From a virus: a stretch of 64,000 nucleotides of DNA. The translations under genes were made by a program, and so were the position numbers. The notes beneath the pieces are model-generated. The model did no database searches, had not been told where the DNA came from, and worked only from the letters and a program-made list of their open reading frames with translations. The stretch covers positions 1 to 64,000 of the IMG/VR virus record IMGVR_UViG_3300028800_000074; one strand, given 5' to 3'. Of the stretch, positions 22,542 to 38,397 are shown one piece after another. Within the stretch, counting starts at the first letter, position 1; each line of letters begins with the position of its first letter.

Positions 22542-25500
22542 ATGGCAGCGCGTAAGCGGCCGACCTCATCCCCCCGGGTGAGGCCCGGCATCCATATCTC
22601 GGCGGCCCTCCAGTCCCGTATCCTGCGGGCCAAGGACGGTCCGAGCTACGACCCGTTCAAGCCCTACGTTCACGATCAGGCGCTGCACCCGCCCGGCGTA
22701 ACGATGGCGATGGACGACGCCTACAACTCCTTCAGCCCGACGGCTGGGTGGTCGGTCCGCAGCCTCGGCAGCGCTATCGCCGAGGGGCAGGTCTTCCTCG
22801 GCTACCCGACCTTGGCCGCGTTGCTTCAACGCGTCGAGTACATGAACGCGGTCATGTCCTACGCCGACGACATGACGCGGAAGTGGATCGAGTTCAAGGC
22901 GAGCGCCGGGACCGACAAGCAAGAGCGCATCGACGCGATTACAGACAAGTGGGACGCGCTTCAGGTGCAGGCGCGGATGAAGGATCATATCGCGCAGGCT
23001 CTCGGCTTCGGACGGGCGCACGTCTATCTCGACACGGGCGACACCGATAATCCGGACGAGCTGAAGAAGGACATTGGCGACGGCGCTCGGTCTGCCGCCA
23101 CGGCGTTCAAACTCCCGGGCAAGAAGGTGCTCGGGCTCAGGACGATTGAGCCGGTCTGGGTCAGCCCGCACGACTACGAGACCTCGAACCCGCTCAAGCC
23201 GAACTGGTACAAGCCCAACGCTTGGCACGTCATGGCGCGCGAGGTTCATGCGAGCCGTCTTCTGACGACCATCCCGTTCCCGGTCTCCGACTTGCTCAAG
23301 CCCGCCTACTCGTTCGGCGGCATCCCGCTCATCCAGATGGGCAAGCCATACGTCGACAACTGGCTGAACGTCAGACAGTCGACGACCGACATCGCCGAGG
23401 CCTACTCGATCTTCGTGCTTGCGACGAAGTTGCAGGACACGATGGCTGGCGGCAACGGAGACCAAGAAGTCCTCAACCGCGTGGCGCTCTTCAATCGATA
23501 CCGCTCTAACAAGGGCACGATGGTCATCGACAAGGAGACCGAGGACTTCAAGAACATCTCGGCCAATGTGTCCGGCATCGAGGCGATCCAAGCCGCGTCG
23601 CAGGAGCATATGAGCGCCGCATGGCGCATCCCGCTGGTCAAGCTCACCGGCATCTCGCCGTCCGGGCTCAATGCATCGAGCGAGGGCGAGATCAGGGTCT
23701 ATTACGACCTGATCCGGAGCATGCAGGAAGGCCTCATCCGCCCCCTGCTCCAGATCGTCCTCGACTTCACGAGCATCGAGCTGTTCGGCGACGTCGATCC
23801 GGATATCACGTTCGACTTCGTCAAGCTCTTCGAGGTCACCGAGGTTGAGGCGGCCCAGATCAGGTCGGCCGATGCGCAGACCGGCACGGCGCTCATCCAG
23901 TCCGGCGTGATCTCGACCGAGGAAGAGCGGGCCCGCGTCTCCAACGACCCGGACAGCCCGTACATCGACCTCAAGGACACGCCGATCCCAGTCATGCCGG
24001 GCCCAGCCCCGGGTGAAGAGGGCTACGTCGGCGATCCGGATAACTGGCAGACCGCCCTCGAAGGGATCAACAAGCTCGGCGGCCTCCTGCCAGCGCCGGA
24101 GCCCGAGCAGCGCGCCTCACCCGGCGCATGGGAAGGGGTGCTCAAGGGCGTTCTCGCCAACGGTGGGCTTGAGAACCCGGACAACGACGGCATCGTGGCC
24201 TCCCCCGAGGCATGGAAGGCCGTGGGGGCGGGTTTGTCCGCTTCCGGGGGTCTCAGCACCCCAGACGGCTCCGAGGCCGTCCAGCAGCCTCTTGAGCCCG
24301 CCATAAGGCAGGTGTTCGGCAAGGACGCGCTCGAAGACGAGCCGCGCAAGGGTGCCGGGCAGGCTGGCGGTGGCGAATGGACGGCTCAGAGCGGCGGCGG
24401 CGCTCAGAAGTCCGCGCCCGGGAAAAATGGCATTATTGCCGGTAATAATCCGGCCAAGCGTCCCCACGTCGCGCACTATGATCCGAAGGCGACGCAGGTC
24501 GACGCACAGGGCGTGGTTCACACCACGTCGGTCGTCGACGCCGCCCGGGCGCTCTATGACGGCAAGAAGGTCGACCTCAATCAGCCGAGAGAGGTCGCAA
24601 CACTCGTCGACCATCTGGGCCAAGTCGCGAAGCATATGATCGCGATGGGCGATGCTGCGCCGAACTTCAACCTGTGCAACGTCAGCGTCGACAACACGAA
24701 CATCTTCTGTGCGGTGAGCGAGGGCATCCCTCGCATCGACATGCCGCAGCTCCCGCCGAACCTGCACCCGTTCTTGTCGTTCCTCGGCGAGAAGGGTCTC
24801 GGCTTCCAGCCCGCGATGGAAAAGGCTGGCTACCTCAGGGCGACGCAGAACGAGCTGATCGGCGCTAAGGTCGCGGCTATCGCCAAGGCGTTGCAGAACA
24901 TCGATCCGCGCAAGCTCGACCCGCTCGTGGTCAGCAAGGACAACTATATCGTCGACGGTCACCATCGCTGGTCGGCGGAAGTGGCGATCTCGGCTGAGCA
25001 AGGCAACTTCGACCGGCCGCTCGAAATCTATCGCGTCAACAGCGACATCTTGCCGCTGCTCAAGCTCGCCAACGACTTCACGGGCGGCAAGGGACATGTC
25101 GCCGGATCGCTCAAGCCGGGCGAGGCTGCGCTGAACCTGAAGACCGAGAACCATTTCCTTGATGGGGAGACCCACGCGCACGACGGCCGCCCTTTTGGCC
25201 TTGACGAGGCTCGACCGAATCAGGCCATGGATGACTTCAGCCCGTCAGAACCGCGCAAGGGCGTGGGACAGGCTGGTGCAGGGGAGTGGACGGCGGAGGG
25301 TGGGGCTGCGGCTCCTTTTGGCAAAGGCAAGCAATCCGAGCCTTCCGCCGCTTCTCTAAGCGACAAGATCGTCTCAACCCGGAACGTGACAGCCAAGTCC
25401 ACCAAGGGCGAGGCCGAGGGCAAGTACCTCCGCATCGACACCGATGCGATGAAGGCTGACCCTGAGCTGTTCAAGCACAACGTCGGCCTCTTCAAGCGCG

Positions 25501-26627
25501 GCGACCTCTACCCCGGTATGAAGCCCGACGAACTGAAGGGCTCCGAGCAAGAGGTCGCCAAGGCCGTCATCGAGCGCATGCGCGACAACCTCGACTTCCT
25601 CGTCGGGATGGTGCCGAAGGACAAGATCAAGGCGTGGGCGCACTGGTATGAGGGGGCGCACAAATTCGCAGAGGACTTCGGCAAGAAGTATGGCGTCGAC
25701 ACGGCGAGCGCGGCAGGCGTGATCGCGGCCCTCTCGCCGCAGAGGCCGTGGGACGAGAACGTCTACTTCGCGGATCGCGTGATGGACATCATGAAGAACC
25801 ATCCCCACGACAAGTGGGACGACGCGATGAAGTCGACCGGCGAGAGGATTTGGACGAGCGCCAAGAACGCGCCGATCCTGAAGGCCATCGAAGGCAAGCG
25901 CCTCGACGAACTTGACGACCCAGTCGCTCAGGCGGCGTGGATCAGGACGTGGAACGAGGCGCACGAAGACCGCAAGTTCGAGATCGCGAAGCCGGACGGC
26001 ACGTTCGGCGGCAAGATGAAGACGGCGGCCGGAGGCTATGACACCGCGTCATGGGGATCGCTTGCGCAGACCGTGAACGCGATCCACGCTTTCCAGAGCG
26101 GCGGCGACCCGAAGAAGCTCTCCGCAATCTTGGGTGAGAGACACAAGGTTCGCAGCTTCTACAACAACATCATCGCCCCTGATGATCCTAACGGCGACGT
26201 GACGGTCGATACGCATGCTGTTGGAGCGGCGTGGTTGCAGCCGACCTCGGGGACTTCCGCTTCGGTCTGGCACAACCTAGCTAACAATCCGGGCGCAGAG
26301 GGCAAGGACCCGTTCCGGCCGAAGAACTGGGTAGCAGCCAAGGGCTCGGCGAAGCTCGGCGTGAGAGGCACGTATCCGCTCTATGCCGACGCCTATCGAG
26401 AGGCGGCGAAGGATTTGGGGCTCAAGCCCCGCGAGGTTCAGTCGGTCGCGTGGGAGATGAAGCAGCGCCTGTTCAGCGACAAGCTGACCGGCGAGAGGGT
26501 TCAGAAGGCCGTCAACGAGGTCTGGGAAGACTACCGTGACGGCAAGCTCTCGCTGAAGGATGCGCGAGAGAAGGTAGTCTCGGTCGCGACGGCTATGCGC
26601 CCCGACCACAAGATCGACTTCAACTGA
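22542..26627 (+). CDS. Portal (DUF1073 type) fused to a ParB/Srx-like domain and a third helical domain
   Basis: 1361 residues, about two to three times a normal portal. Residues ~60-490 fit the DUF1073 portal family (GWSVRSLGSAI; AFKLPGKKVLGLRTIEPVWV; SPSGLNASSEGEIRVYYDLI). After an EPRKG-x(6)-GEWT linker (E600), a ParB/sulfiredoxin-like domain carries LDPLVVS and VDGHHRW (804-810). A second EPRKG linker (E903) leads to a C-terminal helical domain with AALSPQRPWDEN (~1063) and TVDTHAVGA (~1220), a pattern I recall from uncharacterised phage proteins. The portal ring anchors the packaging motor. The appended domains may act inside the capsid or be ejected with DNA, by inference. Confidence 0.85.
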   Translation: MAARKRPTSSPRVRPGIHISAALQSRILRAKDGPSYDPFKPYVHDQALHPPGVTMAMDDAYNSFSPTAGWSVRSLGSAIAEGQVFLGYPTLAALLQRVEYMNAVMSYADDMTRKWIEFKASAGTDKQERIDAITDKWDALQVQARMKDHIAQALGFGRAHVYLDTGDTDNPDELKKDIGDGARSAATAFKLPGKKVLGLRTIEPVWVSPHDYETSNPLKPNWYKPNAWHVMAREVHASRLLTTIPFPVSDLLKPAYSFGGIPLIQMGKPYVDNWLNVRQSTTDIAEAYSIFVLATKLQDTMAGGNGDQEVLNRVALFNRYRSNKGTMVIDKETEDFKNISANVSGIEAIQAASQEHMSAAWRIPLVKLTGISPSGLNASSEGEIRVYYDLIRSMQEGLIRPLLQIVLDFTSIELFGDVDPDITFDFVKLFEVTEVEAAQIRSADAQTGTALIQSGVISTEEERARVSNDPDSPYIDLKDTPIPVMPGPAPGEEGYVGDPDNWQTALEGINKLGGLLPAPEPEQRASPGAWEGVLKGVLANGGLENPDNDGIVASPEAWKAVGAGLSASGGLSTPDGSEAVQQPLEPAIRQVFGKDALEDEPRKGAGQAGGGEWTAQSGGGAQKSAPGKNGIIAGNNPAKRPHVAHYDPKATQVDAQGVVHTTSVVDAARALYDGKKVDLNQPREVATLVDHLGQVAKHMIAMGDAAPNFNLCNVSVDNTNIFCAVSEGIPRIDMPQLPPNLHPFLSFLGEKGLGFQPAMEKAGYLRATQNELIGAKVAAIAKALQNIDPRKLDPLVVSKDNYIVDGHHRWSAEVAISAEQGNFDRPLEIYRVNSDILPLLKLANDFTGGKGHVAGSLKPGEAALNLKTENHFLDGETHAHDGRPFGLDEARPNQAMDDFSPSEPRKGVGQAGAGEWTAEGGAAAPFGKGKQSEPSAASLSDKIVSTRNVTAKSTKGEAEGKYLRIDTDAMKADPELFKHNVGLFKRGDLYPGMKPDELKGSEQEVAKAVIERMRDNLDFLVGMVPKDKIKAWAHWYEGAHKFAEDFGKKYGVDTASAAGVIAALSPQRPWDENVYFADRVMDIMKNHPHDKWDDAMKSTGERIWTSAKNAPILKAIEGKRLDELDDPVAQAAWIRTWNEAHEDRKFEIAKPDGTFGGKMKTAAGGYDTASWGSLAQTVNAIHAFQSGGDPKKLSAILGERHKVRSFYNNIIAPDDPNGDVTVDTHAVGAAWLQPTSGTSASVWHNLANNPGAEGKDPFRPKNWVAAKGSAKLGVRGTYPLYADAYREAAKDLGLKPREVQSVAWEMKQRLFSDKLTGERVQKAVNEVWEDYRDGKLSLKDAREKVVSVATAMRPDHKIDFN

Positions 26628-26649
26628 ACCTCGGGAGTTTTCGTGCGAC

Positions 26650-27096
26650 ATGACCACAGAGGATGCGAAGGCGGGTCTTAATCTGGTGATGGCCTACGCC
26701 GGTAGGTGGGCGCTGGGCGTCATTGCCTCGGCGCTTGTCTCAATAGGGCTTTACGCCGTCCACCAGAACAACGACATCACGGGCCTCCTGTCGTCGCACA
26801 CGCAAAACTTCGTGAGCATGCAGCGCGAGATCGACGAGATTAAGGGCGACATCGCCAACCACAACAAGCAGATCGACGATACGCAGAGGCAGATCAAGTC
26901 GGACCTGAGCGAGGCGCAGAAAGAGTCGCAGACGCAACTGGAGCGTCGGCAGGACGAGATCATGAGCGCGGTGCATGACGTAACGCGCGCCGTAATCGCC
27001 GCGCACTCCGACCTGATGTCTCTTCGGGCTGGTCTTTTGAACGCGAAGCCGGGTATTGTCATCCCGTTCGAAGATTCGAGCCGGGCCGAGAAATGA
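26650..27096 (+). CDS. Membrane-anchored coiled-coil protein (i-spanin-like topology)
   Basis: 148 residues. One transmembrane helix lies at about 20-37 (WALGVIASALVSIGLYAV), followed by a long coiled coil at 45-130 (REIDEIKGDIANHNKQIDDT, QESQTQLERRQDE). This is the shape of inner-membrane spanins that act in lysis, but no adjacent outer-membrane spanin is certain. The next gene is exported, and a small lipoprotein lies 3.5 kb downstream. Confidence 0.62.
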   Translation: MTTEDAKAGLNLVMAYAGRWALGVIASALVSIGLYAVHQNNDITGLLSSHTQNFVSMQREIDEIKGDIANHNKQIDDTQRQIKSDLSEAQKESQTQLERRQDEIMSAVHDVTRAVIAAHSDLMSLRAGLLNAKPGIVIPFEDSSRAEK

Positions 27097-27440
27097 GATC
27101 GCAACTGATCATCGTGTTCACGGTCGCCTCTCTGGGCCAATCGGCCTCAGCGCACGCTGGCGACTGGACCGCGCAGGTCGTCGAGCGAACGCAAGGCGGG
27201 CCAGCGGCGGTCTGTAACGGTGAGCAGAGGATCGTCGTCACGAAGAAGCGTGACGGCACCTTCGTCATCGACGGGCCGACCTGCCTTGTTCCAAGAGCGC
27301 CTGCAAATAGCTGGGCTCCTCCGCCTCCGAGGCCGCCGAGCAAGACGGTCCCTCGAAGGGTCTACCACGAGCGCTATGAGCGGCCTCACCACAAGGGTCG
27401 CGCAGGGCTGTTCGACTTCCTGTTCGGTAAGCACCAATGA
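27093..27440 (+). CDS. Small exported protein, unknown
   Basis: 115 residues with a signal peptide (MRSQLIIVFTVASLGQSASA, cleavage near residue 22). There is no lipobox cysteine. The mature part has two Cys, a Pro-rich stretch (APPPPRPPSKTVPRR) and a basic end. It overlaps both neighbours by 4 nt. It could work in the periplasm with the upstream coiled-coil membrane protein, by context only. Confidence 0.6.
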   Translation: MRSQLIIVFTVASLGQSASAHAGDWTAQVVERTQGGPAAVCNGEQRIVVTKKRDGTFVIDGPTCLVPRAPANSWAPPPPRPPSKTVPRRVYHERYERPHHKGRAGLFDFLFGKHQ

Positions 27441-29107
27441 ACACGCCCGGCTCCATCGCCGTCCTCAAGTTCATGACGGAGAACGACATCCCGCTCACCC
27501 GGGAGAACTTCGTCAACACGAACTGGGGCGGCAACCCGCCTCGCCCGTGGGACGCCGAGGCCGAAGAAGAGATACCACTGGAGCTGGCCGAGTTCGGCGA
27601 GCCGGAAGAGAACCGCGAGCTTCTGGAAGACCGTGGCGACCTCGCTGGCGACGACTGGGCCGTGATGGCATCCGGCAAGATCGTCGAAGTCCCCGCTGGC
27701 ACCAAGGCTGGCGACACAGCCCCGGACATCTGGGCCAAGGACGCCTTCGACCCGCAGGAGCCGCGCAAGGACGACGGCGAGTGGACGTCGGGAGGCGGGG
27801 GCGGCGGAGCGAAGGCTGAGAAGGAGCCGGTCGTCGACGTGCCCGCATATGAGTGGGCGAAGCGTCAGATCGACAAGCACACGAAGAACAGCAAGCTGCG
27901 CGCCAAGCAGCACGAGTGGATGGCGCGGCACAAGCAGAACGTCGACGCCTTCTTCAAGAAGAGCGACATCAAGGTCGCGCTCGACAAGGTCGCCAAGGAT
28001 GCGACATCGACCACGTCGTTCACCGTCGGCGCGGCGCTCAATAAGGGCGCGGACGTCGTCTCTGATGCGCTTCAGGACGCCTTGATCGCGGTGGCGGTCG
28101 GAGCTGGCGTCGCAGCCTTCGGCGTCGGAGGTTGGCAGGTCGCAGGATCGGCGGCGCTCGCTTACGCGGTCGAAGAGCTTGGCGACTGGCTCGGGCTCAC
28201 GCCGGAGAACGCGGTCAAGCTCATCAAGGCCGGAGTGCAGGAGATCGGGAAGGCGCTGAAGAAGCGCCCCCAGAAGGACGAGAACGACGACGGGATGTTC
28301 AGCCTTCTGTCGGCTCTCCCGTGGGATCACCCGGTCGACCCGAAGACGAACCCGTTCATCGAAGGCGAAGAGTTCGTGTCTCCGAACGTCAAGACTGGTC
28401 TCGATCTTCAGGACGCGATCAAGGAGACGACGTCGCCGCGCCACAAGACGATGATCAAGGCGGCGCGCGACATCAACAAGCTCATCGGCTTCGAGAGCGA
28501 AGAACACTCAGCGATTGGCGCTTGGCTCGACGGCGCAGAGAACAGCGTGATGTCTGTCACGCACGGCGCGACCATGGCTCAGCTCAGGACGGCGGCGGCG
28601 ATGGAGGGGGCGCTTGCAAACCAGCGCTCGGTGATGATCGTCAACGAGAACGTCGGCGGCAAGGGGCTGCTCTATCACTTCGACGTCAAGGGCGACGTTC
28701 AGTCGATCCACGACGGCTTGCTGGCGAGCGGCGTCGAGTTCCACACCATCGTTCCTTCCGCCGACGGCAAGTTCACGGTATATGTCGCCTCGGCTGATTC
28801 GTCACAACGAGAGTTCAAGGCGGTTCAGAAGGCGGCGGAGCGCTTCAATGCCAAAGTCGAGTACCACAGGGTCGACGCCGAACTCGTCGGATCGGACAAA
28901 GAAGACGGCACCGACGCCGAGCAGCGAGAAGACGCCCAGTCCCGTTACGGATCAATCATTGAAGGCGGCGGGGTTCAAGGAGCCAAAGCCATCTGGGGCC
29001 GGGTTTATTCTCGGTACAAGGCCGCCTTCGAAGACAGAGCCGTAAAGAAGCCTCGTGAAGAGAGGCCGCCGTGGCGGACGCAACAGGCTGAGGGGGCGAG
29101 AGCGTGA
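27437..29107 (+). CDS. Virion-associated protein with EPR linker, unknown
   Basis: 556 residues. An acidic N-terminus leads to the EPRKDDGEWTSGGG linker at 108-121, like those in the portal fusion and the DUF2213 protein. A helical segment with a hydrophobic stretch follows (LIAVAVGAGVAAFGVGGW). The C-terminal ~150 residues (AIGAWLDGAENSVMSVTHGA, then SVMIVNENVGGKGLLYHFDV) form an alpha/beta domain that I have seen in other phage head-associated proteins but cannot name. Possibly a capsid cargo protein. Confidence 0.65.
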   Translation: MNTPGSIAVLKFMTENDIPLTRENFVNTNWGGNPPRPWDAEAEEEIPLELAEFGEPEENRELLEDRGDLAGDDWAVMASGKIVEVPAGTKAGDTAPDIWAKDAFDPQEPRKDDGEWTSGGGGGGAKAEKEPVVDVPAYEWAKRQIDKHTKNSKLRAKQHEWMARHKQNVDAFFKKSDIKVALDKVAKDATSTTSFTVGAALNKGADVVSDALQDALIAVAVGAGVAAFGVGGWQVAGSAALAYAVEELGDWLGLTPENAVKLIKAGVQEIGKALKKRPQKDENDDGMFSLLSALPWDHPVDPKTNPFIEGEEFVSPNVKTGLDLQDAIKETTSPRHKTMIKAARDINKLIGFESEEHSAIGAWLDGAENSVMSVTHGATMAQLRTAAAMEGALANQRSVMIVNENVGGKGLLYHFDVKGDVQSIHDGLLASGVEFHTIVPSADGKFTVYVASADSSQREFKAVQKAAERFNAKVEYHRVDAELVGSDKEDGTDAEQREDAQSRYGSIIEGGGVQGAKAIWGRVYSRYKAAFEDRAVKKPREERPPWRTQQAEGARA

Positions 29108-29313
29108 CGCTCGAAGAAGAGCTTTTCAAAAGAGCGCAGCTTGAGGCTGAGGCGGATCGCATCCTCAGCATCGGCATCGCGCATAATCGAAAGGTGCAGC
29201 GAAACGCCAAGCGCCTTAAGCACTGGACTGGGGGCCGCCTCACCACGGCCGAGATCAATCAGATGACGGCTGAGATGAGGGCGAGGGCTGGTGACGGCAA
29301 GGTTCTCGGGTAA
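29104..29313 (+). CDS. Small helical protein before MuF
   Basis: 69 residues from GTG 29104: MTLEEELFKRAQLEAEADRI, then a basic segment HNRKVQRNAKRLKHWTG. It overlaps the previous stop by 4 nt and the MuF-like start by 23 nt. No family was recognised. Confidence 0.6.
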   Translation: MTLEEELFKRAQLEAEADRILSIGIAHNRKVQRNAKRLKHWTGGRLTTAEINQMTAEMRARAGDGKVLG

Positions 29314-30214
29314 GTGGTGCGGGCAGCCTTACGGCAAGCCCAGCGTGCTGCTCACCCTTCCAAACCTCATGGGTCTCGACGCCAAGGCGTCAGGGAAGCC
29401 CGCTGGCGGCCGTCGGCCGTCCGTCGCGGTAGGCAGGCCCCTGCATCCGAACCTCGGTCTGGCGGCCTCCTATGGGGCGCGGCTGACCTCTCTGATCGAC
29501 GAGATGCACCGGAGCGTTATCTATTGGCTCAAGGCCGAGTATCGAGCTAACCCACCAGCGACCATGGCGTTCGACGATCTCGCATCGAAGACACTGGCCG
29601 AGACGATGAAGGGTTTGGCGAAGCGGTGGCTAGGACGCTTCGATGAAATGGCGGAGAGGCTGGCCCGTTATTTCGCCCAGTCCGTATCCAAGCGGACCGA
29701 CGACGCGCTCAGGAAGATTTTGAGCGACGGCGGCATGGCGCTCAGGGACTGGAAGACGACCGCCGCCCAGAAGGATGCGCTCGCGGCCATCGTCCACGAG
29801 AACGTGTCGCTGATCAAATCGATCCCGCGCGAGTATCTCGGCAAGGTCGAGCGCGACGTGATGCGGTCGGTCGCGGCCGGTCGAGACCTGAAGCAGCTCG
29901 AAGACGATCTTCAGGCACACTTCGGGGTGACCCGAGACAGGGCTAGGCTGATCGCGGTCGACCAGAACAACAAGGCGACGGCGATGCTGCGCCGCGTCCG
30001 CGCCGTCGAGGCGGGCACGTTCACATGGGAGTGGATGCACTCCAGCGCAGGCAAGACGCCGCGCCCGACGCATCTCGCGGCCGGACGTCGTGGCCAGCGG
30101 TTCGACATCCGAGAGGGATGGTTCGATCCGCATGAGGGCCGCAAGGTTCAGCCGGGCGAATTGATCCGGTGCCGATGTACTTGCCGACCGGTTTTCCCCG
30201 GCCTACCGTCCTGA
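29291..30214 (+). CDS. MuF/SPP1 gp7-like minor head protein
   Basis: 307 residues from GTG 29291. The C-terminus has the head-morphogenesis signature: TWEWMHSSAGKTPRPTHLAA, then PGELIRCRCTCRPV, with the CRC motif. The helical centre (DQNNKATAMLRRVRAVEAGT) fits too. MuF proteins bind the portal and affect head assembly and DNA ejection. The gene lies downstream of the portal as usual, with two genes between. Confidence 0.88.
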   Translation: MTARFSGKWCGQPYGKPSVLLTLPNLMGLDAKASGKPAGGRRPSVAVGRPLHPNLGLAASYGARLTSLIDEMHRSVIYWLKAEYRANPPATMAFDDLASKTLAETMKGLAKRWLGRFDEMAERLARYFAQSVSKRTDDALRKILSDGGMALRDWKTTAAQKDALAAIVHENVSLIKSIPREYLGKVERDVMRSVAAGRDLKQLEDDLQAHFGVTRDRARLIAVDQNNKATAMLRRVRAVEAGTFTWEWMHSSAGKTPRPTHLAAGRRGQRFDIREGWFDPHEGRKVQPGELIRCRCTCRPVFPGLPS

Positions 30215-30259
30215 AAGGTGATTCGGCGTTGCCGACACCACGTTGGAAGGAGAGAGCCA

Positions 30260-30646: not shown

Positions 30647-30657
30647 AGGGTTTCGAC

Positions 30658-30974: not shown

Positions 30975-31236
30975 GACTGAGCAGCCGCTGATCGGCACCT
31001 TCTGCGAGACGTACAGGATCAAGAACGCGACGAGCGAGATCGGCGGCTTCTGGCGTATCGGCATGTTCTTCTGCGATGCGCAGGACGCCGCGACGGCCGA
31101 GAAGGTGGCGAAGTACAAGGCGATGCAGAAGCACGGCCTCATGCCCTATTTTCTGTCGACGGCGAGGGTGATCCCGTTCGGGTTGCCTGACCCCGGCCAA
31201 GCGCTGCGCAAGAAGGTCGAGAAGAAAACCAAATGA
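30967..31236 (+). CDS. Small phage protein, unknown
   Basis: 89 residues from ATG 30967 (MAETEQPLIGTFCETYRIKN). Two Cys and a helical end (ALRKKVEKKTK). Starting further upstream in this frame would put it inside the preceding gene. The stop overlaps the next start (ATGA). Confidence 0.6.
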   Translation: MAETEQPLIGTFCETYRIKNATSEIGGFWRIGMFFCDAQDAATAEKVAKYKAMQKHGLMPYFLSTARVIPFGLPDPGQALRKKVEKKTK

Positions 31237-31430
31237 GCCGGAAGCTGGCGGTCCTGTTCGACCTCTTGGAAACCGTGGTCATCGACAAACAGGTTGAGGC
31301 GAAGATCGTCGAGATCACGGCCCTCCCAGCTCAGAACGGTGAGGTCCGCATCCTCTACCACGTCGAATGGTTCAACAACGGCGCGCTCCTTTCAGCGAAC
31401 ATCGACGAGGACAGGCTGACCGCGAAATGA
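31233..31430 (+). CDS. Small beta-rich protein, unknown
   Basis: 65 residues: MSRKLAVLFDLLETVVIDKQ, then EVRILYHVEWFNNGALLSAN. It looks like a small beta barrel. ATGA overlaps on both sides. No family was recognised. Confidence 0.6.
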   Translation: MSRKLAVLFDLLETVVIDKQVEAKIVEITALPAQNGEVRILYHVEWFNNGALLSANIDEDRLTAK

Positions 31431-31696
31431 GCTTCGGCTGGCGCAAGGCTTTACGCGAAATGTTCGGTCTCAAGTCGCCGGATGATGCCCGGTCCGAGCA
31501 GTCCCAGCCGAAGCTCTTCGCCGATGGGACATGGGCTCCAAGGGTCTTCACGAGGGTGTGGAGGTCGTCGAACGGGAACACGACGCTTATTCTCAACTTC
31601 GACGAAGACCCGAACCGAGATGGGTGGAACTGGGGCCGACCGTGGACGAGGCTGACCGAGATCGCGCCCGGCATGTTTCGAGGCGATGATCGATGA
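31427..31696 (+). CDS. Small phage protein, unknown
   Basis: 89 residues from ATG 31427 (MSFGWRKALREMFGLKSPDD), with the C-terminal part rich in Trp and Arg (NRDGWNWGRPWTRL). Overlaps with neighbours by 4 nt. No family was recognised. Confidence 0.6.
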   Translation: MSFGWRKALREMFGLKSPDDARSEQSQPKLFADGTWAPRVFTRVWRSSNGNTTLILNFDEDPNRDGWNWGRPWTRLTEIAPGMFRGDDR

Positions 31697-31938
31697 TTCG
31701 TCCTGCCTGCTACATCTGCCTGCAAGAGCTTCCAGAGAGCTTCACCTTCACGAAGGGCGAGCCGCCGCCGCGTGACGCTTGGTACTGGACGAACGTAACG
31801 CCAGACGCCTCACCGCCTCCGTTTGGTAGTGGGCCCGTGATGCGACCGGTGCATGACCGGTGCAAGCCGCTGCCTACGCTAGTCGCCAGTGCGAGAACGG
31901 TGGCGGGGGATCGCGGGGCTCAGGGGCTGGCGGAGTAG
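31693..31938 (+). CDS. Small CxxC protein, unknown
   Basis: 81 residues: MIRPACYICLQELPESFTFT, with a CYIC pair near the start and VHDRC later, which together could bind zinc. The 3' 65 nt overlap the opposing gene at 31874-32071. Confidence 0.6.
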   Translation: MIRPACYICLQELPESFTFTKGEPPPRDAWYWTNVTPDASPPPFGSGPVMRPVHDRCKPLPTLVASARTVAGDRGAQGLAE

Positions 31939-32071
31939 CACCAATGGCCTTGCGCGCGATTGCCGTGATTTCCATGATCGCCGCTATGTCCGCCTGAACC
32001 AAGCGCGGACTGAGAAGGAGTTGCAATTCGATTGATGCGATGCGCTGCTCTACCGCTTGGTTGTTTGTCAT
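31874..32071 (-). CDS. Leftward gene inside the late operon (tentative)
   Basis: 65 residues from ATG 32071, preceded by GAAAGAGAGAGCCCG, a good ribosome site of the type used elsewhere in this phage. It begins MTNNQAVEQRIASIELQLLL, forms a helix, and ends Pro-rich. It opposes the surrounding genes and overlaps the end of the CxxC gene, so it may be independently transcribed or be an early 'moron'. The 32072-32174 gap to its right holds no clear operator. Confidence 0.45.
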   Translation of the reverse strand: MTNNQAVEQRIASIELQLLLSPRLVQADIAAIMEITAIARKAIGATPPAPEPRDPPPPFSHWRLA

Positions 32072-32174
32072 CGGGCTCTCTCTTTCGCTCAATGGCCAAA
32101 GATAATCGGACTACGTCCGAGCCGGATAGTTGTCACCCCTCGGAAACTACTCAAACGTCGCCACGGAGCTTGTG

Positions 32175-32525
32175 ATGTCTCTCAGCCCGCTCGTCGCGCT
32201 CTTGGTGTTGCTGGCCGCGTCTTCAGCTCACGCCGAGAGCTACTGCGGGAAGCCTGAGAACGATGCGGTTCTCAAGCTCATCCCAGACGCCAAGATCGAG
32301 ACGCTCACGAAGAGCCAGTTCTACTACGCGCTCGGCATCTGGAACGGACAACCTCCGATTGGGCGTGGACCGGACGACGTGGACGGCGCTGAGATCGTGA
32401 CAAGCCCGGACGGCAAGAGAGCAGCGGTCTTGTTCACGCTGGGGCCGCTGTTGTGTGGAGGGATTGCTCCGGCTCCGCCTCAGGTCATCGAGATGATCCG
32501 AAAGATTGATGGAGGGGAGCTGTGA
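32175..32525 (+). CDS. Small exported protein, unknown
   Basis: 116 residues from ATG 32175. A signal peptide (MSLSPLVALLVLLAASSAHA) is followed by a mature 96-residue part with two Cys (SYCGK and LLCGG). Probably periplasmic with one disulfide. The stop overlaps the next GTG. Confidence 0.65.
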   Translation: MSLSPLVALLVLLAASSAHAESYCGKPENDAVLKLIPDAKIETLTKSQFYYALGIWNGQPPIGRGPDDVDGAEIVTSPDGKRAAVLFTLGPLLCGGIAPAPPQVIEMIRKIDGGEL

Positions 32526-32899
32526 TCCGCTGGGCCGTCGCGTTCTTGCTTCTTGCGTCGCCTGCCGTTGCGCATACGAACTGCGACGGGTCGAGCGCGA
32601 GCAAGGTCCAAGGGTGCTGCGGTCCGGAAGACTCGCTCCATGTGAGTCCCGGCGACGTGAGCCGCGACGGCGACGTCTGGTACGTCAAGATCGATGGCGC
32701 GATGCACGCGCTGATCAACGGAGCTGGCAACCCCATCCAGCTCATGCCGCAGGACGATCAGGGCCACGGCTCCTGCTACACGGTCTGGTACCGGCGCGAG
32801 GTCACGAAGGGCAGCAGCTCTTTCGATCCCAACAATACGCACGGCGGAAGCGGTGATGTGTACCACTTCTACTGCTTCCAAGGACCATACACCTTTTAA
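32522..32899 (+). CDS. Small exported cysteine-rich protein, unknown
   Basis: 125 residues from GTG 32522. The signal peptide MIRWAVAFLLLASPAVA precedes a mature part with five Cys (NCDGS, GCCGPED, SCYTVWY, FYCFQ), likely disulfide-bonded in the periplasm. Paired with the exported gene just upstream. No family was named. Confidence 0.65.
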   Translation: MIRWAVAFLLLASPAVAHTNCDGSSASKVQGCCGPEDSLHVSPGDVSRDGDVWYVKIDGAMHALINGAGNPIQLMPQDDQGHGSCYTVWYRREVTKGSSSFDPNNTHGGSGDVYHFYCFQGPYTF

Positions 32900-32937
32900 G
32901 ACCTTCTGAAGGAGAGAGCAGAAGTGGACACACGACA

Positions 32938-33402
32938 GTGAAGAACGACGAAGAATGGGTTTCGCTGAACCCGCCTAGGGGTGGACGAGCTCCGTCCCTG
33001 CCTCCTGACTGGATCAGGGTGTCGATGAACATCGCTGATGCAGGGAACGAGGCCTTCATCCGCTTCGGTGGAAGGTGGGCCGCGTGGGCGCTCAAGGCGA
33101 AGAGCATCGCCGTCATGCTCGGCGGCACGAAGCTCAACAAGCTCAAGCTCACGCCAGATGAGAACGGTTTCCGCGTAAGCAAGGGCAACCCGAAGAGCGT
33201 CACGGCGGTTGTCCGGCTACGCCACGTAGGCCAGTGGCCACGCGAAGAGCGTCCGCTCACCTTCGCCGAGGTCAAGGTGCTCGACGACGGTTCGCTCATC
33301 ATCTTCCTCCCCGAGACGTTCGGGCAGAAGAAGATCGTCGCCGCGATGGCGGGTCGCCCGGCAATCCCGGCCGGAGCCATGGGCGGTGGAAACAGGCGGT
33401 GA
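32938..33402 (+). CDS. Phage protein, unknown
   Basis: 154 residues from GTG 32938 after GAAGGAGAGAG. N-terminus Pro/Arg rich, then a repeated beta pattern (AVMLGGTKLNKLKL, SLIIFLPETFGQKKIV). No family was recognised. Its stop overlaps the next GTG. Confidence 0.6.
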   Translation: MKNDEEWVSLNPPRGGRAPSLPPDWIRVSMNIADAGNEAFIRFGGRWAAWALKAKSIAVMLGGTKLNKLKLTPDENGFRVSKGNPKSVTAVVRLRHVGQWPREERPLTFAEVKVLDDGSLIIFLPETFGQKKIVAAMAGRPAIPAGAMGGGNRR

Positions 33403-33605
33403 GCCTAGCTGACCGCTATATCGGCGAGGACGGAGGTCCGCCTACCGGCAAGCCGAAGAAGCGGTTGCCGAAGTCCGATATTGACAACCTGATCAACAAG
33501 GTCTTTCGAGGCTTCAACATCGGGGCGTCCATCTCGGATCGATTCGAGGCGCACGACGCGATGGCGAAGCTAGCCAAGGTCTTGAGAAACGAACATGTCG
33601 CCTGA
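33399..33605 (+). CDS. Small basic protein, unknown
   Basis: 68 residues from GTG 33399: MSLADRYIGEDGGPPTGKPK, then KSDIDNLINKVFRGFN and a helix. GTGA overlap with the upstream gene; it ends 11 nt into the next. Confidence 0.58.
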   Translation: MSLADRYIGEDGGPPTGKPKKRLPKSDIDNLINKVFRGFNIGASISDRFEAHDAMAKLAKVLRNEHVA

Positions 33606-33882
33606 GCACACACCGGCTCGACCCTCGAAGTGCTGCCCCGCTCTATCCCGTCGCCTCATGGGCGCGGTCGGGTTTCATGCCTACCCCATGATGAACGCCT
33701 ACGCCGGATGGTTCGAGCCGATCTCTGGGCGGATCAACGTCGAGTGGCTCTCGCCGGAAGAGGTTAAGGTCCGGCACGATAAGCTCGTAGCAGAGGGTCA
33801 GAAGCGGACCTTCCAGATGGTCAACGGCATCGTCGTGGAGGCCAACGTCGACGATCTCAATGCAATCTCGGAGCGCGTGTGA
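33595..33882 (+). CDS. Small phage protein, unknown
   Basis: 95 residues: MSPEHTPARPSKCCPALSRR, then an aromatic stretch GFHAYPMMNAYAGWFEP and a helical end. Overlaps both neighbours. No family was recognised. Confidence 0.55.
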   Translation: MSPEHTPARPSKCCPALSRRLMGAVGFHAYPMMNAYAGWFEPISGRINVEWLSPEEVKVRHDKLVAEGQKRTFQMVNGIVVEANVDDLNAISERV

Positions 33883-34100
33883 TGGCTGACCCCGTGGTGA
33901 CCCTCGTGCAGGGCGACAAGGTCTCCGACAAAGAGCGCGCCGAGTGGCACAAGCAGAACATCGCCAAGGCGGCAGAGACGCTCTTCGCCGCCATGGACCT
34001 CGCGGTCAGCGAGGACTTCGTCATCAACTTCCAGCCCACCATAAACATAGCGATCAAAAAGCACATGATCGCGGTGCTGGGCGTCGGGAGGATGTGGTGA
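33879..34100 (+). CDS. Small helical protein, unknown
   Basis: 73 residues from GTG 33879 (or 72 from ATG 33882): MADPVVTLVQGDKVSDKERA, then AKAAETLFAAMDLAVSED. Overlaps the previous stop by 4 nt. No family was recognised. Confidence 0.58.
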   Translation: MMADPVVTLVQGDKVSDKERAEWHKQNIAKAAETLFAAMDLAVSEDFVINFQPTINIAIKKHMIAVLGVGRMW

Positions 34101-34396
34101 CGGCGATTGGCGGATGGGACATCGTCCACGAGTGCGATGACGGCTATCACGTCGTCTGGCTCCTGAGCAACGACAAGGGCGAAGAGCTGGCGCACGCCGA
34201 GGGCTTCCGGCGCGGGGAGAACGGCGGGTACGTCTGGTACCCCTACGCGATGGACCCGAGCGACCCCGAGCATCTGATCCGTCTCGGTCCGTCGGCGCAC
34301 AGCGACATCGAACTCGTGAAGAAACAGTGCGAGGCAGTCATCGAGGGGTCCAAGAGCCCTTACGCGGACAGCGTCGCCTACGTGATCGGAGGTTGA
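34097..34396 (+). CDS. Small phage protein, unknown
   Basis: 99 residues from GTG 34097: MTAIGGWDIVHECDDGYHVV, beta-rich, then a helical end with one Cys (KKQCEAVIEG). GTGA overlap with the upstream gene. No family was recognised. Confidence 0.6.
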   Translation: MTAIGGWDIVHECDDGYHVVWLLSNDKGEELAHAEGFRRGENGGYVWYPYAMDPSDPEHLIRLGPSAHSDIELVKKQCEAVIEGSKSPYADSVAYVIGG

Positions 34397-34399
34397 GGC

Positions 34400-35107
34400 G
34401 TGGGCAGCAACGGCAAACTCGGCATGGACGCTTGGAAGAAGGCGTTCGCGAAGGACTGCTGGATGAAGGGCGCGAAGGACGACAACGAGTCCATGGCGGC
34501 CGAGCAGGACGACAGCGGCGGCATGACCGGCGACGTCCCCGGCTTCGAGACCTCGCATGTGCCAACCTTCAGCCCCGAGGACTTCGAGCGCTTGGGCGCA
34601 CGGAAGGCCAAGGGCAACGACGACGCCTATCGCGGATGGACGCCCGGTGGCGGTGCGCCACAGCCGATCACGACCAGATCAACTCCGGCAGCGCCTAAGC
34701 GCCCGGAGTACCGTGGGTGGACCCCGGGTGGTGGCGCACCGATGTCGAAGGACGGCATCGTGAGCGGCATCAAGAGCGCGGCGAAGTCGGCGTTCGCGGC
34801 AGCGAGGAAGCCTTACCCGTCGTCAACTCCGGGCGACCCGTTTCACCTTCCGAGCGCGACGCCGAAGAACGGCTTCTCGATGCGGAACGGTCGCGGCGCT
34901 CATGACTCGCCGACCGACAAGACGCCCGATCAACCGTCCGGCTTCGACAAGGGCGGCATGGTGCGCGGCATGGATTACCTGAAGAAGGGCCAGAGGCGTC
35001 TCGGCAAGGCTGGCGCGATGGACGTCATCCTGAAGACGAAGCGCCCCAGTAGTGGCGTCAGCACTTCGCTCCGGCACGAAGTAGAGGACTTGCAGGACTC
35101 GGTGTGA
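34400..35107 (+). CDS. Disordered protein with duplicated YRGWTPGGGAP
   Basis: 235 residues from GTG 34400. The unit YRGWTPGGGAP occurs twice, around residues 77-87 and 103-113. The protein is otherwise low-complexity (Gly, Pro, Ser, Lys). The N-terminal AFAKDCWMKGAKDD resembles the start of the gene at 35679 (CFSHDCWKPKTAAKDD), so the two may share an ancestral N-terminal segment. No enzymatic motif was seen. Confidence 0.6.
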   Translation: MGSNGKLGMDAWKKAFAKDCWMKGAKDDNESMAAEQDDSGGMTGDVPGFETSHVPTFSPEDFERLGARKAKGNDDAYRGWTPGGGAPQPITTRSTPAAPKRPEYRGWTPGGGAPMSKDGIVSGIKSAAKSAFAAARKPYPSSTPGDPFHLPSATPKNGFSMRNGRGAHDSPTDKTPDQPSGFDKGGMVRGMDYLKKGQRRLGKAGAMDVILKTKRPSSGVSTSLRHEVEDLQDSV

Positions 35108-35129
35108 GTCCTGAAGCGAGGAGAGAGAG

Positions 35130-35369
35130 ATGCTGAATCACATCGAAGTCAACGACCGCCTTACCCGCCTTGAGCGCTTCGTCGCCGAGATCGGCTCGCA
35201 CATCTCGTCGGACAGTATTTCGCCAGAGCTGGAGCAGTTCGTCGCGGCCGATCAGGCGAGGATCGACAAGGAGCGTGAAGAGCAGTCGGCGAATGAGCCC
35301 GGCGAGGCCCACGACGGCGGCCCGATGCCGCCCGAGGGCGACGGCACCGACCCTGACGCGCCTCGTTGA
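35130..35369 (+). CDS. Small acidic protein, unknown
   Basis: 79 residues, with GAGGAGAGAGAG upstream. Helical start (EVNDRLTRLERFVAEIGSHI) and a disordered acidic Pro/Gly/Asp tail. The stop overlaps a TTG that starts the next gene. Confidence 0.6.
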   Translation: MLNHIEVNDRLTRLERFVAEIGSHISSDSISPELEQFVAADQARIDKEREEQSANEPGEAHDGGPMPPEGDGTDPDAPR

Positions 35370-35521
35370 CGATCAGGCACGTCTGCGCCTTCTGTTCGAC
35401 GAATAACGCGATGCAGATGGGCTCGACCGCGACCAAGAACGGGCGGACCGGCGTCGTGAAGTGGTGGAACTTGCTCCACTGCATCAAGTGCCGCCGCTCG
35501 TATCGGATCGGTCGAACATGA
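35366..35521 (+). CDS. Small zinc-ribbon protein
   Basis: 51 residues from TTG 35366: MTIRHVCAFCSTNNAMQMGS ... CIKCRRSY. CAFC and CIKC form a four-cysteine zinc ribbon about 30 residues apart, with a basic end. TTG overlaps the upstream TGA; the end overlaps the next ATG (ATGA). Confidence 0.5.
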   Translation: MTIRHVCAFCSTNNAMQMGSTATKNGRTGVVKWWNLLHCIKCRRSYRIGRT

Positions 35522-35682
35522 ACTGGGCGCTCGCTCACTTGCGCCATAAGATGCGCGTCAAGGGCTATGGCCTCGTTCGAGACCGGCGCAGATGGCGGAA
35601 CGAGCGCAATCACTGGCGCGTGCGGCGACAGATGATGTCGCTCTTCGAGGCGGCGGGATTTTTCGAGGCCGAGAGCCAATGA
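35518..35682 (+). CDS. Small basic protein, unknown
   Basis: 54 residues from ATG 35518: MNWALAHLRHKMRVKGYGLV, very Arg-rich (RDRRRWRNERNHWRVRRQM). Probably nucleic-acid- or capsid-interior-binding, by charge only. 4-nt overlaps on both sides. Confidence 0.5.
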   Translation: MNWALAHLRHKMRVKGYGLVRDRRRWRNERNHWRVRRQMMSLFEAAGFFEAESQ

Positions 35683-35921
35683 GCTTCAATGTTCAAGGAT
35701 GGTCGAAGTGCTTCTCGCATGATTGCTGGAAGCCGAAGACTGCCGCGAAGGACGATTGGGGCGACTATCATCGGGTCGGTGGGATGAACTTCCCGACCGC
35801 GAAGACGGCCGAGCGCATCGATCACGCTGGTCTCAATAAGGAGACGCGCACTCCCGGGAACATGCGCGAAGACGAAGGTCTCGGCCAGTCCATCAGGGAC
35901 GACCGGGACATGAGCTGGTAA
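35679..35921 (+). CDS. Small phage protein, unknown
   Basis: 80 residues from ATG 35679: MSFNVQGWSKCFSHDCWKPK. The CFSHDCW segment resembles the one in the gene at 34400. The rest is polar and probably disordered. It directly precedes the protease/scaffold gene. Confidence 0.55.
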   Translation: MSFNVQGWSKCFSHDCWKPKTAAKDDWGDYHRVGGMNFPTAKTAERIDHAGLNKETRTPGNMREDEGLGQSIRDDRDMSW

Positions 35922-35940
35922 CCGCAGCTCTCCCTTTCAG

Positions 35941-38397
35941 ATGCGTCGACCTGTCGGGTTCGCCCGAGCGCTTGCGCTCGACGACTTCAATGCGGCTGAG
36001 CCTCGCGCCAACAATGGCCAGTGGGCAGCGGCTCCGGGCGGGGGCTTCACGCTCAGGCCAGACGCGGCCAGTGCCGCTACCCGTTACAGAAGGGCAACGG
36101 AGCGAGCGCAGTCTGCTCTGCCTGACGACGACGAATATCAGCGTCTTCTGGAGCAGGGGCGGAAGCTCGAAGGCCTGAAGGCCGCCGTCCGCGATCCCCT
36201 GACCGGGAAGATCATGACCGGGCGTGATCACAACGCGGCGTTCTACTCGCACGATAAGGATGCGCAGGCGCGCATCAAGGCGACACTGACGCCCGGACGA
36301 GACCCGGTGACGAACGTCGCGACCAATAGGTGGAACTACGAAGGGCCAAACGTCGGCTTTACTCGTGGTGGATCATTTTTCTCGCGTCAGCAGGTCGAGG
36401 ACATGCTTAAGGCGCGCGATGATCAGGATTTATCCGAAGCGCTTCACGGTGCCTCCTACGAGGATGTGCGCTCGAAGCGCAGTTCAATCGCCAGCACCAT
36501 CGCCCGCTTCCATAATCGTGAGGGCGGAGAACCCATGTTCGGTGGAGATCGAAGGAAAGTGTTCGCGCACGACGCAATCGATGCAGAGATGGCGTTCGAT
36601 GAAGCCCAGACCACGCGATCTTATGATCCGTTCGGTCGGCTCAACCTCGACCTGACGCCGATCTCGAAGGCGACCGTCAATCCATATCAGGGGAAGGAAA
36701 TCCCCGACTGGCAGAAGCTCAAGCTTGACCCCGAAAAGGTCTACATGCTGCTTCGCCATCCCGACGAACTGAAGCGCGCAGCCGCGAGCTTCAACAATGT
36801 GCCGCTGCTCTATCGTCACAAGCCGACGAGCGCCGAGAACCATCCACGCGATCTCGTTGTGGGGACGACCGGCGAGCGCGCAGTTTATCAGCACCCCTAC
36901 CTCTACAACTCGATGTCCGTCTGGGACGACAACGACGGCATCGAGGGCATCGAGAACAACAAGGCTCGCGCTCTCTCGTGTGGCTACGCCTATGACCCGG
37001 ACATGAGGCCGGGCGTCTACGAGGGGCAGCGTTACGACGGCGTGATGCGCAACATCAGGGGCAATCACGTCATCCTCACAAAGGAAGGCCGCGCCGGGCC
37101 GGACATCATCGTTGGCGACTCAATGGAGAACCTCAACATGGCAACTGCACCGAAGCTTTCTCCGGTGGCATTGGTCGCTCGAAGGGCGGTCAGGCAGCAC
37201 CTTACGCCGCTCATGGCGGCCGACGCGGCGATTGACATCACGCCCGCCTTCGTCGGCCTCAAGCAGCTCGACGAGCGATCCCAGCAGATCGTTCACGCGC
37301 GGGTCGGCCAGCTCGTGCGCGGCAAGCTCAACGCGGCGCTGGCGATGGACGATGTGAGCGCCGGGCTCCGTGCGCTGCTCGAAGCGCTTGGCGGAGGCGG
37401 CGAGCCCGACATGGGCGGCGGCGTCGACGACGTCTCCCCTCCCGGGACCGAGGCCGAGGGCATGCCCGAGACCGACCTCGCGACCGGCGCAGAGCCGGAC
37501 ACGATGCAGCTCGAAACCGACGCCGCTCCCCCGGAGGATACCTCTGGCGGCAACGACCCGCCTCCGATGCAGGGCGCTGGCGGCGATCCGGCTGCGATGG
37601 AGCAGGCGGGTCCGGCACCGCAGGGCGGCGAAGGCGCGGCAGGACCGATTGAGAAGGTCCGCAGCTACCTCATGACCGTCCTGAACCCCGCCGAGATGCA
37701 GCATCTCGAACTCCTCATCTCCGAAGTCGACAGCGGCGACGGAGGGGAGCCGGACCCGACCATGCAGGCGGGAGGCTCAGAGAAGCCCGGTGGCGGCCAT
37801 CCGCCGATGGCCGGTGCTGGTGGACCTCCCGGCCCCGACAAGGGCGCTGGCGGGCCTCCTATGGCCGCTGGCGGCCCTCCCAAGCCTCCCGGCGCTGGCG
37901 GACCTCCGCCGAAGCCCGGCGCGGGTGGGCCTCCCGATCCCAAGAAGCAAACCGGGGATAACCCCCCTCGAACCGCAGGAACGCCGCAGGTCGGCGGAAA
38001 GGACAGAAACATGGCAGGTGATCAGGCCTTCGTCAGCCGGGCCGACCTTCAGGCTGCGCTCGCGGCGAACGACAAGCTCCATCGTGAGCGTGCGGAAGCC
38101 CGGGCTTTCATCCGACCGTTTGTCGGGGAACTCACCGGGCTCGCGATGGACGCGGCTCCGAACGACGTCATCAAGGCCGCGCTCAAGATCAAGGGCATGT
38201 CCGACGCCGACCTGAAGCCAATTCAGGACACGGCCGCGCTCAAGCTCCTGCTCGGCGCTCAGTCGAAGGCCGAAGCGTCGCGTGAGAGAGCGCCCCGCAT
38301 GGCGCTCGATTCGAAGGCGACGTCGAAGGACGAGCCCTTCAGCATCGAGGCCGTCACCGGTCTCAAGAACTTCGGAAGGATCGGACGCGCGGCCTAA
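35941..38397 (+). CDS. DUF2213 prohead protease fused to scaffold-like region, with EPR module
   Basis: 818 residues. The EPRANNGQWA linker is at 20-29, so the first part is a short module of its own. About 220-410 fits DUF2213 (KLDPEKVYMLLRHPDELKRA; LLYRHKPTSAENHPRDL; GNHVILTKEGRAGPDIIVGD), a family annotated as phage head maturation protease. After 440 comes a Pro/Gly-rich linker (PPMAGAGGPPGPDKGAGGPP) and a helical C-terminus like a scaffold. The enzyme would cleave head proteins while its tail scaffolds the prohead. It precedes the decoration and capsid genes. Confidence 0.82.
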   Translation: MRRPVGFARALALDDFNAAEPRANNGQWAAAPGGGFTLRPDAASAATRYRRATERAQSALPDDDEYQRLLEQGRKLEGLKAAVRDPLTGKIMTGRDHNAAFYSHDKDAQARIKATLTPGRDPVTNVATNRWNYEGPNVGFTRGGSFFSRQQVEDMLKARDDQDLSEALHGASYEDVRSKRSSIASTIARFHNREGGEPMFGGDRRKVFAHDAIDAEMAFDEAQTTRSYDPFGRLNLDLTPISKATVNPYQGKEIPDWQKLKLDPEKVYMLLRHPDELKRAAASFNNVPLLYRHKPTSAENHPRDLVVGTTGERAVYQHPYLYNSMSVWDDNDGIEGIENNKARALSCGYAYDPDMRPGVYEGQRYDGVMRNIRGNHVILTKEGRAGPDIIVGDSMENLNMATAPKLSPVALVARRAVRQHLTPLMAADAAIDITPAFVGLKQLDERSQQIVHARVGQLVRGKLNAALAMDDVSAGLRALLEALGGGGEPDMGGGVDDVSPPGTEAEGMPETDLATGAEPDTMQLETDAAPPEDTSGGNDPPPMQGAGGDPAAMEQAGPAPQGGEGAAGPIEKVRSYLMTVLNPAEMQHLELLISEVDSGDGGEPDPTMQAGGSEKPGGGHPPMAGAGGPPGPDKGAGGPPMAAGGPPKPPGAGGPPPKPGAGGPPDPKKQTGDNPPRTAGTPQVGGKDRNMAGDQAFVSRADLQAALAANDKLHRERAEARAFIRPFVGELTGLAMDAAPNDVIKAALKIKGMSDADLKPIQDTAALKLLLGAQSKAEASRERAPRMALDSKATSKDEPFSIEAVTGLKNFGRIGRAA

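What the first reader, a model, noticed from the sequence alone, without database searches (positions are those of the whole stretch)
22542..38397. Shared EPR-x(3-7)-G-x-W linker joins modules in three head proteins
EPRKG-x(6)-EWT (portal fusion, twice), EPRKDDGEWTSGGG (27437 gene) and EPRANNGQWA (DUF2213 gene) form one linker family followed by Gly-rich spacers. I recall similar NEPR-like linkers before modules carried by phage head proteins. It may mark a system for swapping or releasing capsid-borne domains, perhaps a protease target for the co-encoded DUF2213 enzyme.
Basis: partly seen in the sequence, partly recalled or inferred. Interest (0 to 1): 0.75.

Follow-up and report, generated by a model that had tools for sequence, protein, structure and literature searches.

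The report
Peptide tag marking phage head cargo
Phages infecting many kinds of bacteria put the same short peptide in front of very different enzymes and toxin-like domains that appear to travel inside the virus head; it is probably an address label for head cargo, which would let such cargo be recognised from sequence alone.

Summary
In detail: four copies lie at 24330, 25236, 27746 and 35986, and the motif is not local. DNA-pattern scans of public viral contigs found about 280 distinct copies in two co-varying classes, [FY][DN]Px[EQ]PRDxxG[RKQ]WTxGG and [WF][DN]ExxHPRDxxG[KRQ]FTxGG, plus a long-spacer form (the form of both portal copies here). The next domain differs each time (148 sequence clusters: ADP-ribosyltransferases, RNases, NUDIX, topoisomerase IB, SAM-lyase and others). 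All three cargo modules of this window recur elsewhere behind their own copy, in other arrangements, including single ORFs that also encode a prohead protease and HK97 capsid protein.

It is not just a linker. In at least 75 of 237 ORFs it lies within 40 residues of the N-terminus, and it almost never ends a protein. So it is a module prefix: a disordered N-terminal peptide, a glycine spacer, then a folded cargo domain. The best explanation is a head-entry (docking) tag, working like the capsid-targeting sequences of T4 and P1 but with unrelated sequence. Cleavage by the DUF2213 protease is not supported, though not excluded. The docking partner is unknown and nothing was tested at the bench.

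The parts
22542..26627 (+). Portal-fusion ORF, 1361 aa: portal domain, motif 1, ParB/sulfiredoxin-like module, motif 2, DUF7178 module
   Evidence: Pfam Phage_portal_3 E 7e-73 and DUF7178 E 5.8e-25; PHROG portal and ParB-like
22689..24017 (+). Portal domain (approx. residues 50-492)
   Evidence: phrog_146 residues 50-492, E 2.9e-94
24330..24380 (+). Motif copy 1, long-spacer form: LEDEPRKGAGQAGGGEW, followed by TAQSGGG
   Evidence: sequence; pLDDT about 35-41, i.e. predicted disordered
24459..25151 (+). ParB-N/sulfiredoxin-like module (VVSKDNYIVDGHHRW)
   Evidence: phrog_1033; Foldseek to Srx and ParB-N, prob 0.92-0.98 but E 0.02-0.06; recurs behind its own motif in L030, L031, L046, L051, L056, L080
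25236..25289 (+). Motif copy 2, long-spacer form: FSPSEPRKGVGQAGAGEW, followed by TAEGGAAA
   Evidence: sequence
25359..26624 (+). DUF7178 module (function unknown)
   Evidence: Pfam DUF7178; recurs behind its own motif in L029, L031, L112
27437..29107 (+). 27437 ORF, 556 aa: N-terminal part, motif 3, helical region, SAM-lyase-like module
   Evidence: ORF; no Pfam or PHROG family
27746..27784 (+). Motif copy 3, canonical: FDPQEPRKDDGEW, followed by TSGGGGGG
   Evidence: profile E 9.7e-8; pLDDT 32-47
28313..28906 (+). 'FVSPN' module, probable SAM-lyase fold
   Evidence: best VIA-align match phage SAM lyase 6znb, Z 10.7, 110 of 125 residues; recurs behind its own motif in L030, L031, L046, L057, L080
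35941..38397 (+). DUF2213 ORF, 818 aa: short N-terminus, motif 4, about 175-aa unknown N-terminal part, DUF2213 head maturation protease domain, Pro/Gly-rich C-terminus
   Evidence: Pfam DUF2213 E 4.7e-42; phrog_2229 head maturation protease E 1.8e-95
35986..36024 (+). Motif copy 4, divergent, N-terminal: FNAAEPRANNGQW, followed by AAAPGGG
   Evidence: profile E 2.1e-4
36616..37122 (+). DUF2213 protease domain (residues 226-394); most relatives start near this domain and lack the motif-bearing N-terminal extension
29291..30214 (+). MuF-like head protein, no motif (context)
   Evidence: Phage_Mu_F E 5.6e-9; no core match
39472..40575 (+). Major head protein, no motif (context)
   Evidence: phrog_264 E 6.4e-44; no core match

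Best explanation
The motif is a module prefix, not a linker proper: a short disordered N-terminal peptide (aromatic-[DN]-[PE]-x-[EQH]-P-R-D-x-x-G-[KRQE]-[WF]-T) and a glycine spacer in front of a folded cargo domain. Its likely job is to dock cargo to a partner in the assembling phage head, so that enzymes, toxin-like effectors and sometimes the prohead protease itself are enclosed and later delivered with the DNA. Prefix plus module is the unit that moves: it can be a gene of its own or be joined to a portal, a MuF protein, a protease or a protease-capsid polyprotein. Shown by sequence: the motif, its two co-varying classes, its N-terminal polarity, the variety of modules, the shuffling, the nearness to head genes. 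Inferred: that the modules enter the virion, that the peptide is what brings them in, and that it binds a head protein. The partner is unknown.
For: The same prefix precedes modules in 148 sequence clusters, including ADP-ribosyltransferases, PBECR and RNase A-like RNases, NUDIX, TopIB, SAM lyase, glutamine deamidase, MuF and S78 protease. Upstream of the first copy lie portals of four Pfam families, MuF and prohead proteases. Polarity: 75 of 237 ORFs have it within 40 aa of the frame's 5' stop, and only 4 of 206 have fewer than 60 aa after it. Co-variation among copies not selected by the search patterns: HPR with final F 80:2, E/QPR with final W 46:6. Head-gene proximity: median 6.6 kb against 13.9 kb in a rotation null, p = 0.0002. 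Window modules ParB-like, FVSPN and DUF7178 each carry their own copy in L031, in another order and host protein. It leads a cultured phage's annotated capsid maturation protease (Nocardia P3.1, MARRKFNPRQPRDLRGRW). Portal-motif-ADP-ribosyltransferase in Pseudomonas phage Orimi01. Motif predicted disordered, modules folded. [quoted passage not shown]
Against: No binding partner was found, and no virion proteomics shows a motif-bearing cargo in a virion. Modules fused to a portal should not need a targeting tag, yet keep it. Some portal-cargo fusions lack it (Bcep781 portal-NUDIX). The motif spans different portal and protease families and many host phyla, which asks for an unusually conserved or convergent receptor. 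P1 DarB, a proven head-targeted cargo, has no such motif.
Confidence: 0.5

Rival explanations
1. Processing site: the head maturation protease cuts at or near the motif, freeing each module from its neighbour or trimming a leader from standalone cargo (the first reader's idea; like T4 capsid-targeting sequences that are cut off by gp21).
For: It lies at module borders, up to 7 times in one polypeptide; it is predicted disordered and so accessible; it occurs in phages with S78 or DUF2213 proteases; T4 targeting peptides are also cut.
Against: It is the same in phages with different protease families; it sits 1-5 residues from many start codons, where cutting frees nothing; the cargo/S78 junctions of three cargo-protease-capsid polyproteins have no copy; the major head protein of the window, the usual protease substrate, has none.
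Confidence: 0.17
2. Passive inheritance: the peptide is only a flexible connector that tolerates fusion, spread with the modules by recombination, with no partner and no processing.
For: Gly-rich spacers follow it; synonymous bases at P and R are somewhat more alike between copies in one ORF than expected (0.69 and 0.61 against 0.38 and 0.35, 36 pairs), consistent with duplication of copies; some fusions do without it.
Against: A passive linker would not keep P, R, G and an aromatic, with two co-varying classes, across unrelated modules and many host phyla, using all synonymous codons; nor would it lead standalone proteins.
Confidence: 0.2
3. Exit or host-side signal: the peptide guides cargo through the portal and tail during ejection, or acts in the infected cell.
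For: Would explain why portal-fused modules keep it; many of the named modules (ADP-ribosyltransferases, RNases, SAM lyase) are of kinds that act on host targets.
Against: Prohead proteases act before ejection but can carry it (Nocardia P3.1); hosts span many phyla.
Confidence: 0.08

Closest known systems
T4 capsid targeting sequences (IPIII, Alt and other internal proteins)
   Same: Short N-terminal peptide in front of unrelated internal head proteins, including an ADP-ribosyltransferase; ten residues suffice for targeting (PMC9026906).
   Different: Different sequence and length; T4 signals are cleaved by gp21; described from T4-like phages, not on portals or as repeated internal copies.
Phage P1 DarB N-terminal packaging signal
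   Same: N-terminal 30 residues target a heterologous reporter to the capsid; cargo is antirestriction (PMC9024508).
   Different: The DarB N-terminus has no motif of this kind; one protein of one phage, not a recurrent family.
Polyvalent proteins and MuF-fused effectors
   Same: The same repertoire of portal-, MuF- and head-associated effector domains (PBECR, ART, InPase, LPD; PMC5512222; PMC5576092).
   Different: Those papers classify the domains. The passages read do not describe a shared peptide, and the word 'linker' does not occur in either text.
Encapsulin cargo-loading peptides (from general knowledge)
   Same: Short peptide plus flexible spacer docks enzymes inside an HK97-fold shell.
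   Different: C-terminal as a rule, different sequence, no phage portal or protease involved. Not tested here.

Membership tests
T4/P1-type capsid targeting sequence | Short sequence at or near the N-terminus of a head cargo protein | tested here: met
   75 of 237 ORFs within 40 aa of the frame's 5' stop, e.g. L063, L099, L118, Nocardia P3.1; in the window itself only the DUF2213 copy is N-terminal. That these proteins are head cargo is inferred from domains and gene neighbourhood.
T4/P1-type capsid targeting sequence | Necessary and sufficient for entry into the head | not testable with these tools
   needs mutants and reporter fusions
T4/P1-type capsid targeting sequence | Removed by the prohead protease (T4) | not testable with these tools
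   indirect evidence against a cut at the motif
T4/P1-type capsid targeting sequence | Sequence similarity to the P1 DarB signal | tested here: not met
   no motif in the P1 DarB N-terminus; best profile score in the P1 stretch is E 0.56, in another protein
Polyvalent or MuF-type head-borne effector proteins | Effector domains fused to portal or MuF, or encoded beside head genes | tested here: met
Phage_portal_3 (PF06381) | Portal profile above curated cut-off | tested here: met
   245.8 bits against 33.8
DUF2213 head maturation protease | Profile match above cut-off | tested here: met
   144.3 bits against 22; catalytic residues not examined
SAM lyase (27437 ORF module) | SAM-lyase fold | tested here: inconclusive
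   top VIA-align rows are SAM lyase (Z 10.7, 10.5), but AcrB porter domains follow at Z 9.5; no SAM-lyase Pfam match for any of 8 members

The most novel reading that the evidence does not exclude
A general 'head cargo' address peptide is shared by tailed phages of many host phyla and read by a conserved docking surface in the procapsid, independent of portal, protease and capsid lineage; it would be the phage counterpart of encapsulin cargo-loading peptides and would mark virion-delivered effectors by sequence alone.
Probability: 0.35. Interest if true: 0.9.

Novelty: new variant of a known kind. Interest (0 to 1): 0.72.

Why it matters
Which phage proteins ride inside the head and enter the host with the DNA is mostly unknown, because the defined signals come from a few model phages (T4, P1). 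A peptide that precedes unrelated effector modules across many phages would give a simple sequence rule for finding virion-delivered effectors, including many with no known fold, and a candidate handle for loading chosen proteins into phage heads. It also makes an open question testable: what in the head recognises it.

Tried and rejected
Rejected: chance (3 regex hits against 0.003 in shuffles; 317 hits, 284 of them unique, against 10 on reversed proteins). Rejected: selection artefact of the DNA patterns; the class co-variation was recomputed on copies the patterns did not select. Rejected: a folded mini-domain; AlphaFold gives pLDDT 30-47 over the motif with 8-15 aligned sequences (shallow alignments, so disorder is a prediction). 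Rejected: general bacterial motif; 1 of 149 genomes of one phylum had a strong match, and that one was the seed genome. Led nowhere: the search for related loci with the whole DUF2213 protein; tblastn of the 27437 protein and of its module relative in phage isolates, no match; motif peptide against solved structures, no match; NCBIfam, no family matching the motif; literature searches for the motif or such a tag, nothing. tblastn with the consensus peptide finds few isolates because a 20-residue query barely reaches significance. The portal motif statistics are partly biased, since many of those loci were fetched through the motif; among portals fetched by portal similarity, the nine without cargo have no motif.

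Full report
Check of the observation. The window is the first 64 kb of a 79,131-base virus record. Its head module runs terminase (18050), portal fusion (22542), 27437 ORF, MuF protein (29291), DUF2213 ORF (35941) and major head protein (39472). Shuffling the window's ORFs gives 0.003 matches on average to the pattern that finds three of them.

How general it is. Three degenerate DNA patterns were scanned against viral contigs and one against bacterial genomes. In the loci from the viral-contig scans and related phages a wider protein pattern finds 317 copies, 284 unique, against 10 when the same proteins are read backwards. Two classes stand out: F/Y-D/N-P-x-E/Q-P-R-D-x-x-G-R/K/Q-W-T, and W/F-D/N-E-x-x-H-P-R-D-x-x-G-K/R/Q-F-T. 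Because the search patterns fixed some of these letters, the association was recomputed on 137 copies that the viral-contig patterns did not select: HPR goes with final F 80 times and W twice; E/QPR with W 46 times and F 6 times. A long-spacer form (8 residues between PR and G-x-W/F) makes up 35 of the unique copies, and both portal copies in the window are of this form. Both classes and the long form occur side by side in one protein (for example L049, L059). The genome scan places copies in contigs of Gastranaerophilales, Clostridia, Treponema, Planctomycetes, Elusimicrobia, Desulfovibrio, Actinobacteria and others (record titles); that these are prophages was not checked one by one. In a sample of 149 genomes of one bacterial phylum only the seed genome matched strongly, so this is not a common bacterial motif.

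What follows and precedes it. Modules behind the motif fall into 148 BLAST clusters. Pfam names a minority: ADP-ribosyltransferases, PBECR RNases, LPD3 and LPD13, DUF7178, SAM lyase, S78 prohead protease, topoisomerase IB, NUDIX, MuF and MuF-C, RNase A-like, glutamine deamidase. Before the first copy lie portals of the Pfam families Phage_portal, Portal_Mu, Phage_portal_2 (lambda) and Phage_portal_3, MuF proteins, head maturation proteases including DUF2213, and further effectors. This is the repertoire that the polyvalent-protein paper described as likely virion-packaged (PMC5512222) and that is found on MuF toxins (PMC5576092). Neither text contains the word 'linker' in the searches made.

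Swap unit. All three cargo modules of the window recur elsewhere behind their own copy of the motif. In L031 one 1938-aa frame runs motif, ParB-like, motif, FVSPN module, motif, DUF7178, S78 protease, HK97 capsid protein. L029 (motif, DUF7178, S78, capsid) and L056 (motif, ParB-like, S78, capsid) are similar. In the window the same modules hang on a portal and in a separate gene. So motif plus module moves as one piece.

Polarity. In 75 of 237 frames the motif lies within 40 aa of the 5' stop, often 1-5 residues after a start codon. Of 206 frames with a complete 3' end only 4 have fewer than 60 aa after the motif. The motif is therefore an N-terminal element of a module and becomes internal when genes fuse. 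The annotated capsid maturation protease of Nocardia phage P3.1 begins with it, MARRKFNPRQPRDLRGRW; prohead proteases must be enclosed in the procapsid (general knowledge). Pseudomonas phage Orimi01 carries portal, motif, ADP-ribosyltransferase in one protein. In 27 records with a recognised portal or MuF gene, motif copies lie near these genes (median 6.6 kb; 13.9 kb under random rotation; p = 0.0002).

Structure. AlphaFold models of the first portal module and of the 27437 protein, with 15 and 8 aligned sequences, show low confidence over the motif (pLDDT 30-47) and folded modules. The first module resembles sulfiredoxin and ParB-N (weak E-values). The 27437 module matches phage SAM lyase best (6znb, Z 10.7, 110 of 125 residues), with AcrB porter domains next at Z 9.5; SAM lyase is therefore likely but not established. 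An injected SAM lyase would fit an antirestriction role (inference from the known family).

Mechanism. The motif has too much fixed sequence for a passive spacer and the wrong position for a release site. In the three cargo-protease-capsid polyproteins the cargo/protease junction has no copy, while the position with little upstream keeps it. The simplest reading is a docking tag that brings cargo into the assembling head. That is what the ten-residue T4 signals (PMC9026906) and the 30-residue P1 DarB signal (PMC9024508) do, with other sequences; P1 DarB lacks this motif. Weak points: portal-fused modules keep a tag that they should not need; the receptor is unknown; and a portal-NUDIX fusion in Bcep781 does without it. 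Cleavage (0.17), passive inheritance (0.2) and an exit or host-side role (0.08) stay open.

Novelty. No paper in the library was found that names the motif, no NCBIfam model covers it in the ten proteins tested, and the peptide matches no solved structure. Most subscription papers are not in the library, so an earlier description cannot be excluded. It is filed as a new variant of a known kind: N-terminal head-cargo signals are known; this one is much wider in host range, portal type and cargo.

Noticed in passing
L031:2142-7955:-, L029:3327-7514:+, L056:2680-6012:-: Single open frames join effector modules, an S78 prohead protease and an HK97-type capsid protein into one polyprotein of 1111-1938 aa; this is an unusual way to put cargo into a head.
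   Followed up: partly
L031, L029, L056, just before the S78 domain: A repeated Cys/Trp-bearing helical-looking segment (DWMxRCVPxMMxxxGGTKRPQxQAVAACxxMW and a degenerate second copy) lies between cargo and protease in all three polyproteins and may be the real junction element.
   Followed up: no
window 28313-28906: The C-terminal module of the 27437 ORF has a probable SAM-lyase fold, which would make it an antirestriction cargo.
   Followed up: partly
window 34400-35107: The ORF repeats YRGWTPGGGAP twice; it resembles only the second half (G-x-W-T-x-GGG) of the motif, without PR.
   Followed up: no
window 20389-22530: A 713-aa protein without any PHROG family sits between terminase and portal.
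   Followed up: no
L049, L059, L142, L157, L133: Large phages (up to 112 kb) carry arrays of up to 7 motif-led modules in one protein and about 10 in one locus, mostly without Pfam names: a source of unknown effector candidates.
   Followed up: no
L213, L214, L207: In Gastranaerophilales and rumen loci some motif-led modules look by eye like lysozyme or M23-type peptidoglycan hydrolases.
   Followed up: no
L008:11716-13803 (Burkholderia phage Bcep781 gp17): A portal-NUDIX fusion without the motif: the tag is not obligatory for portal-borne cargo.
   Followed up: partly
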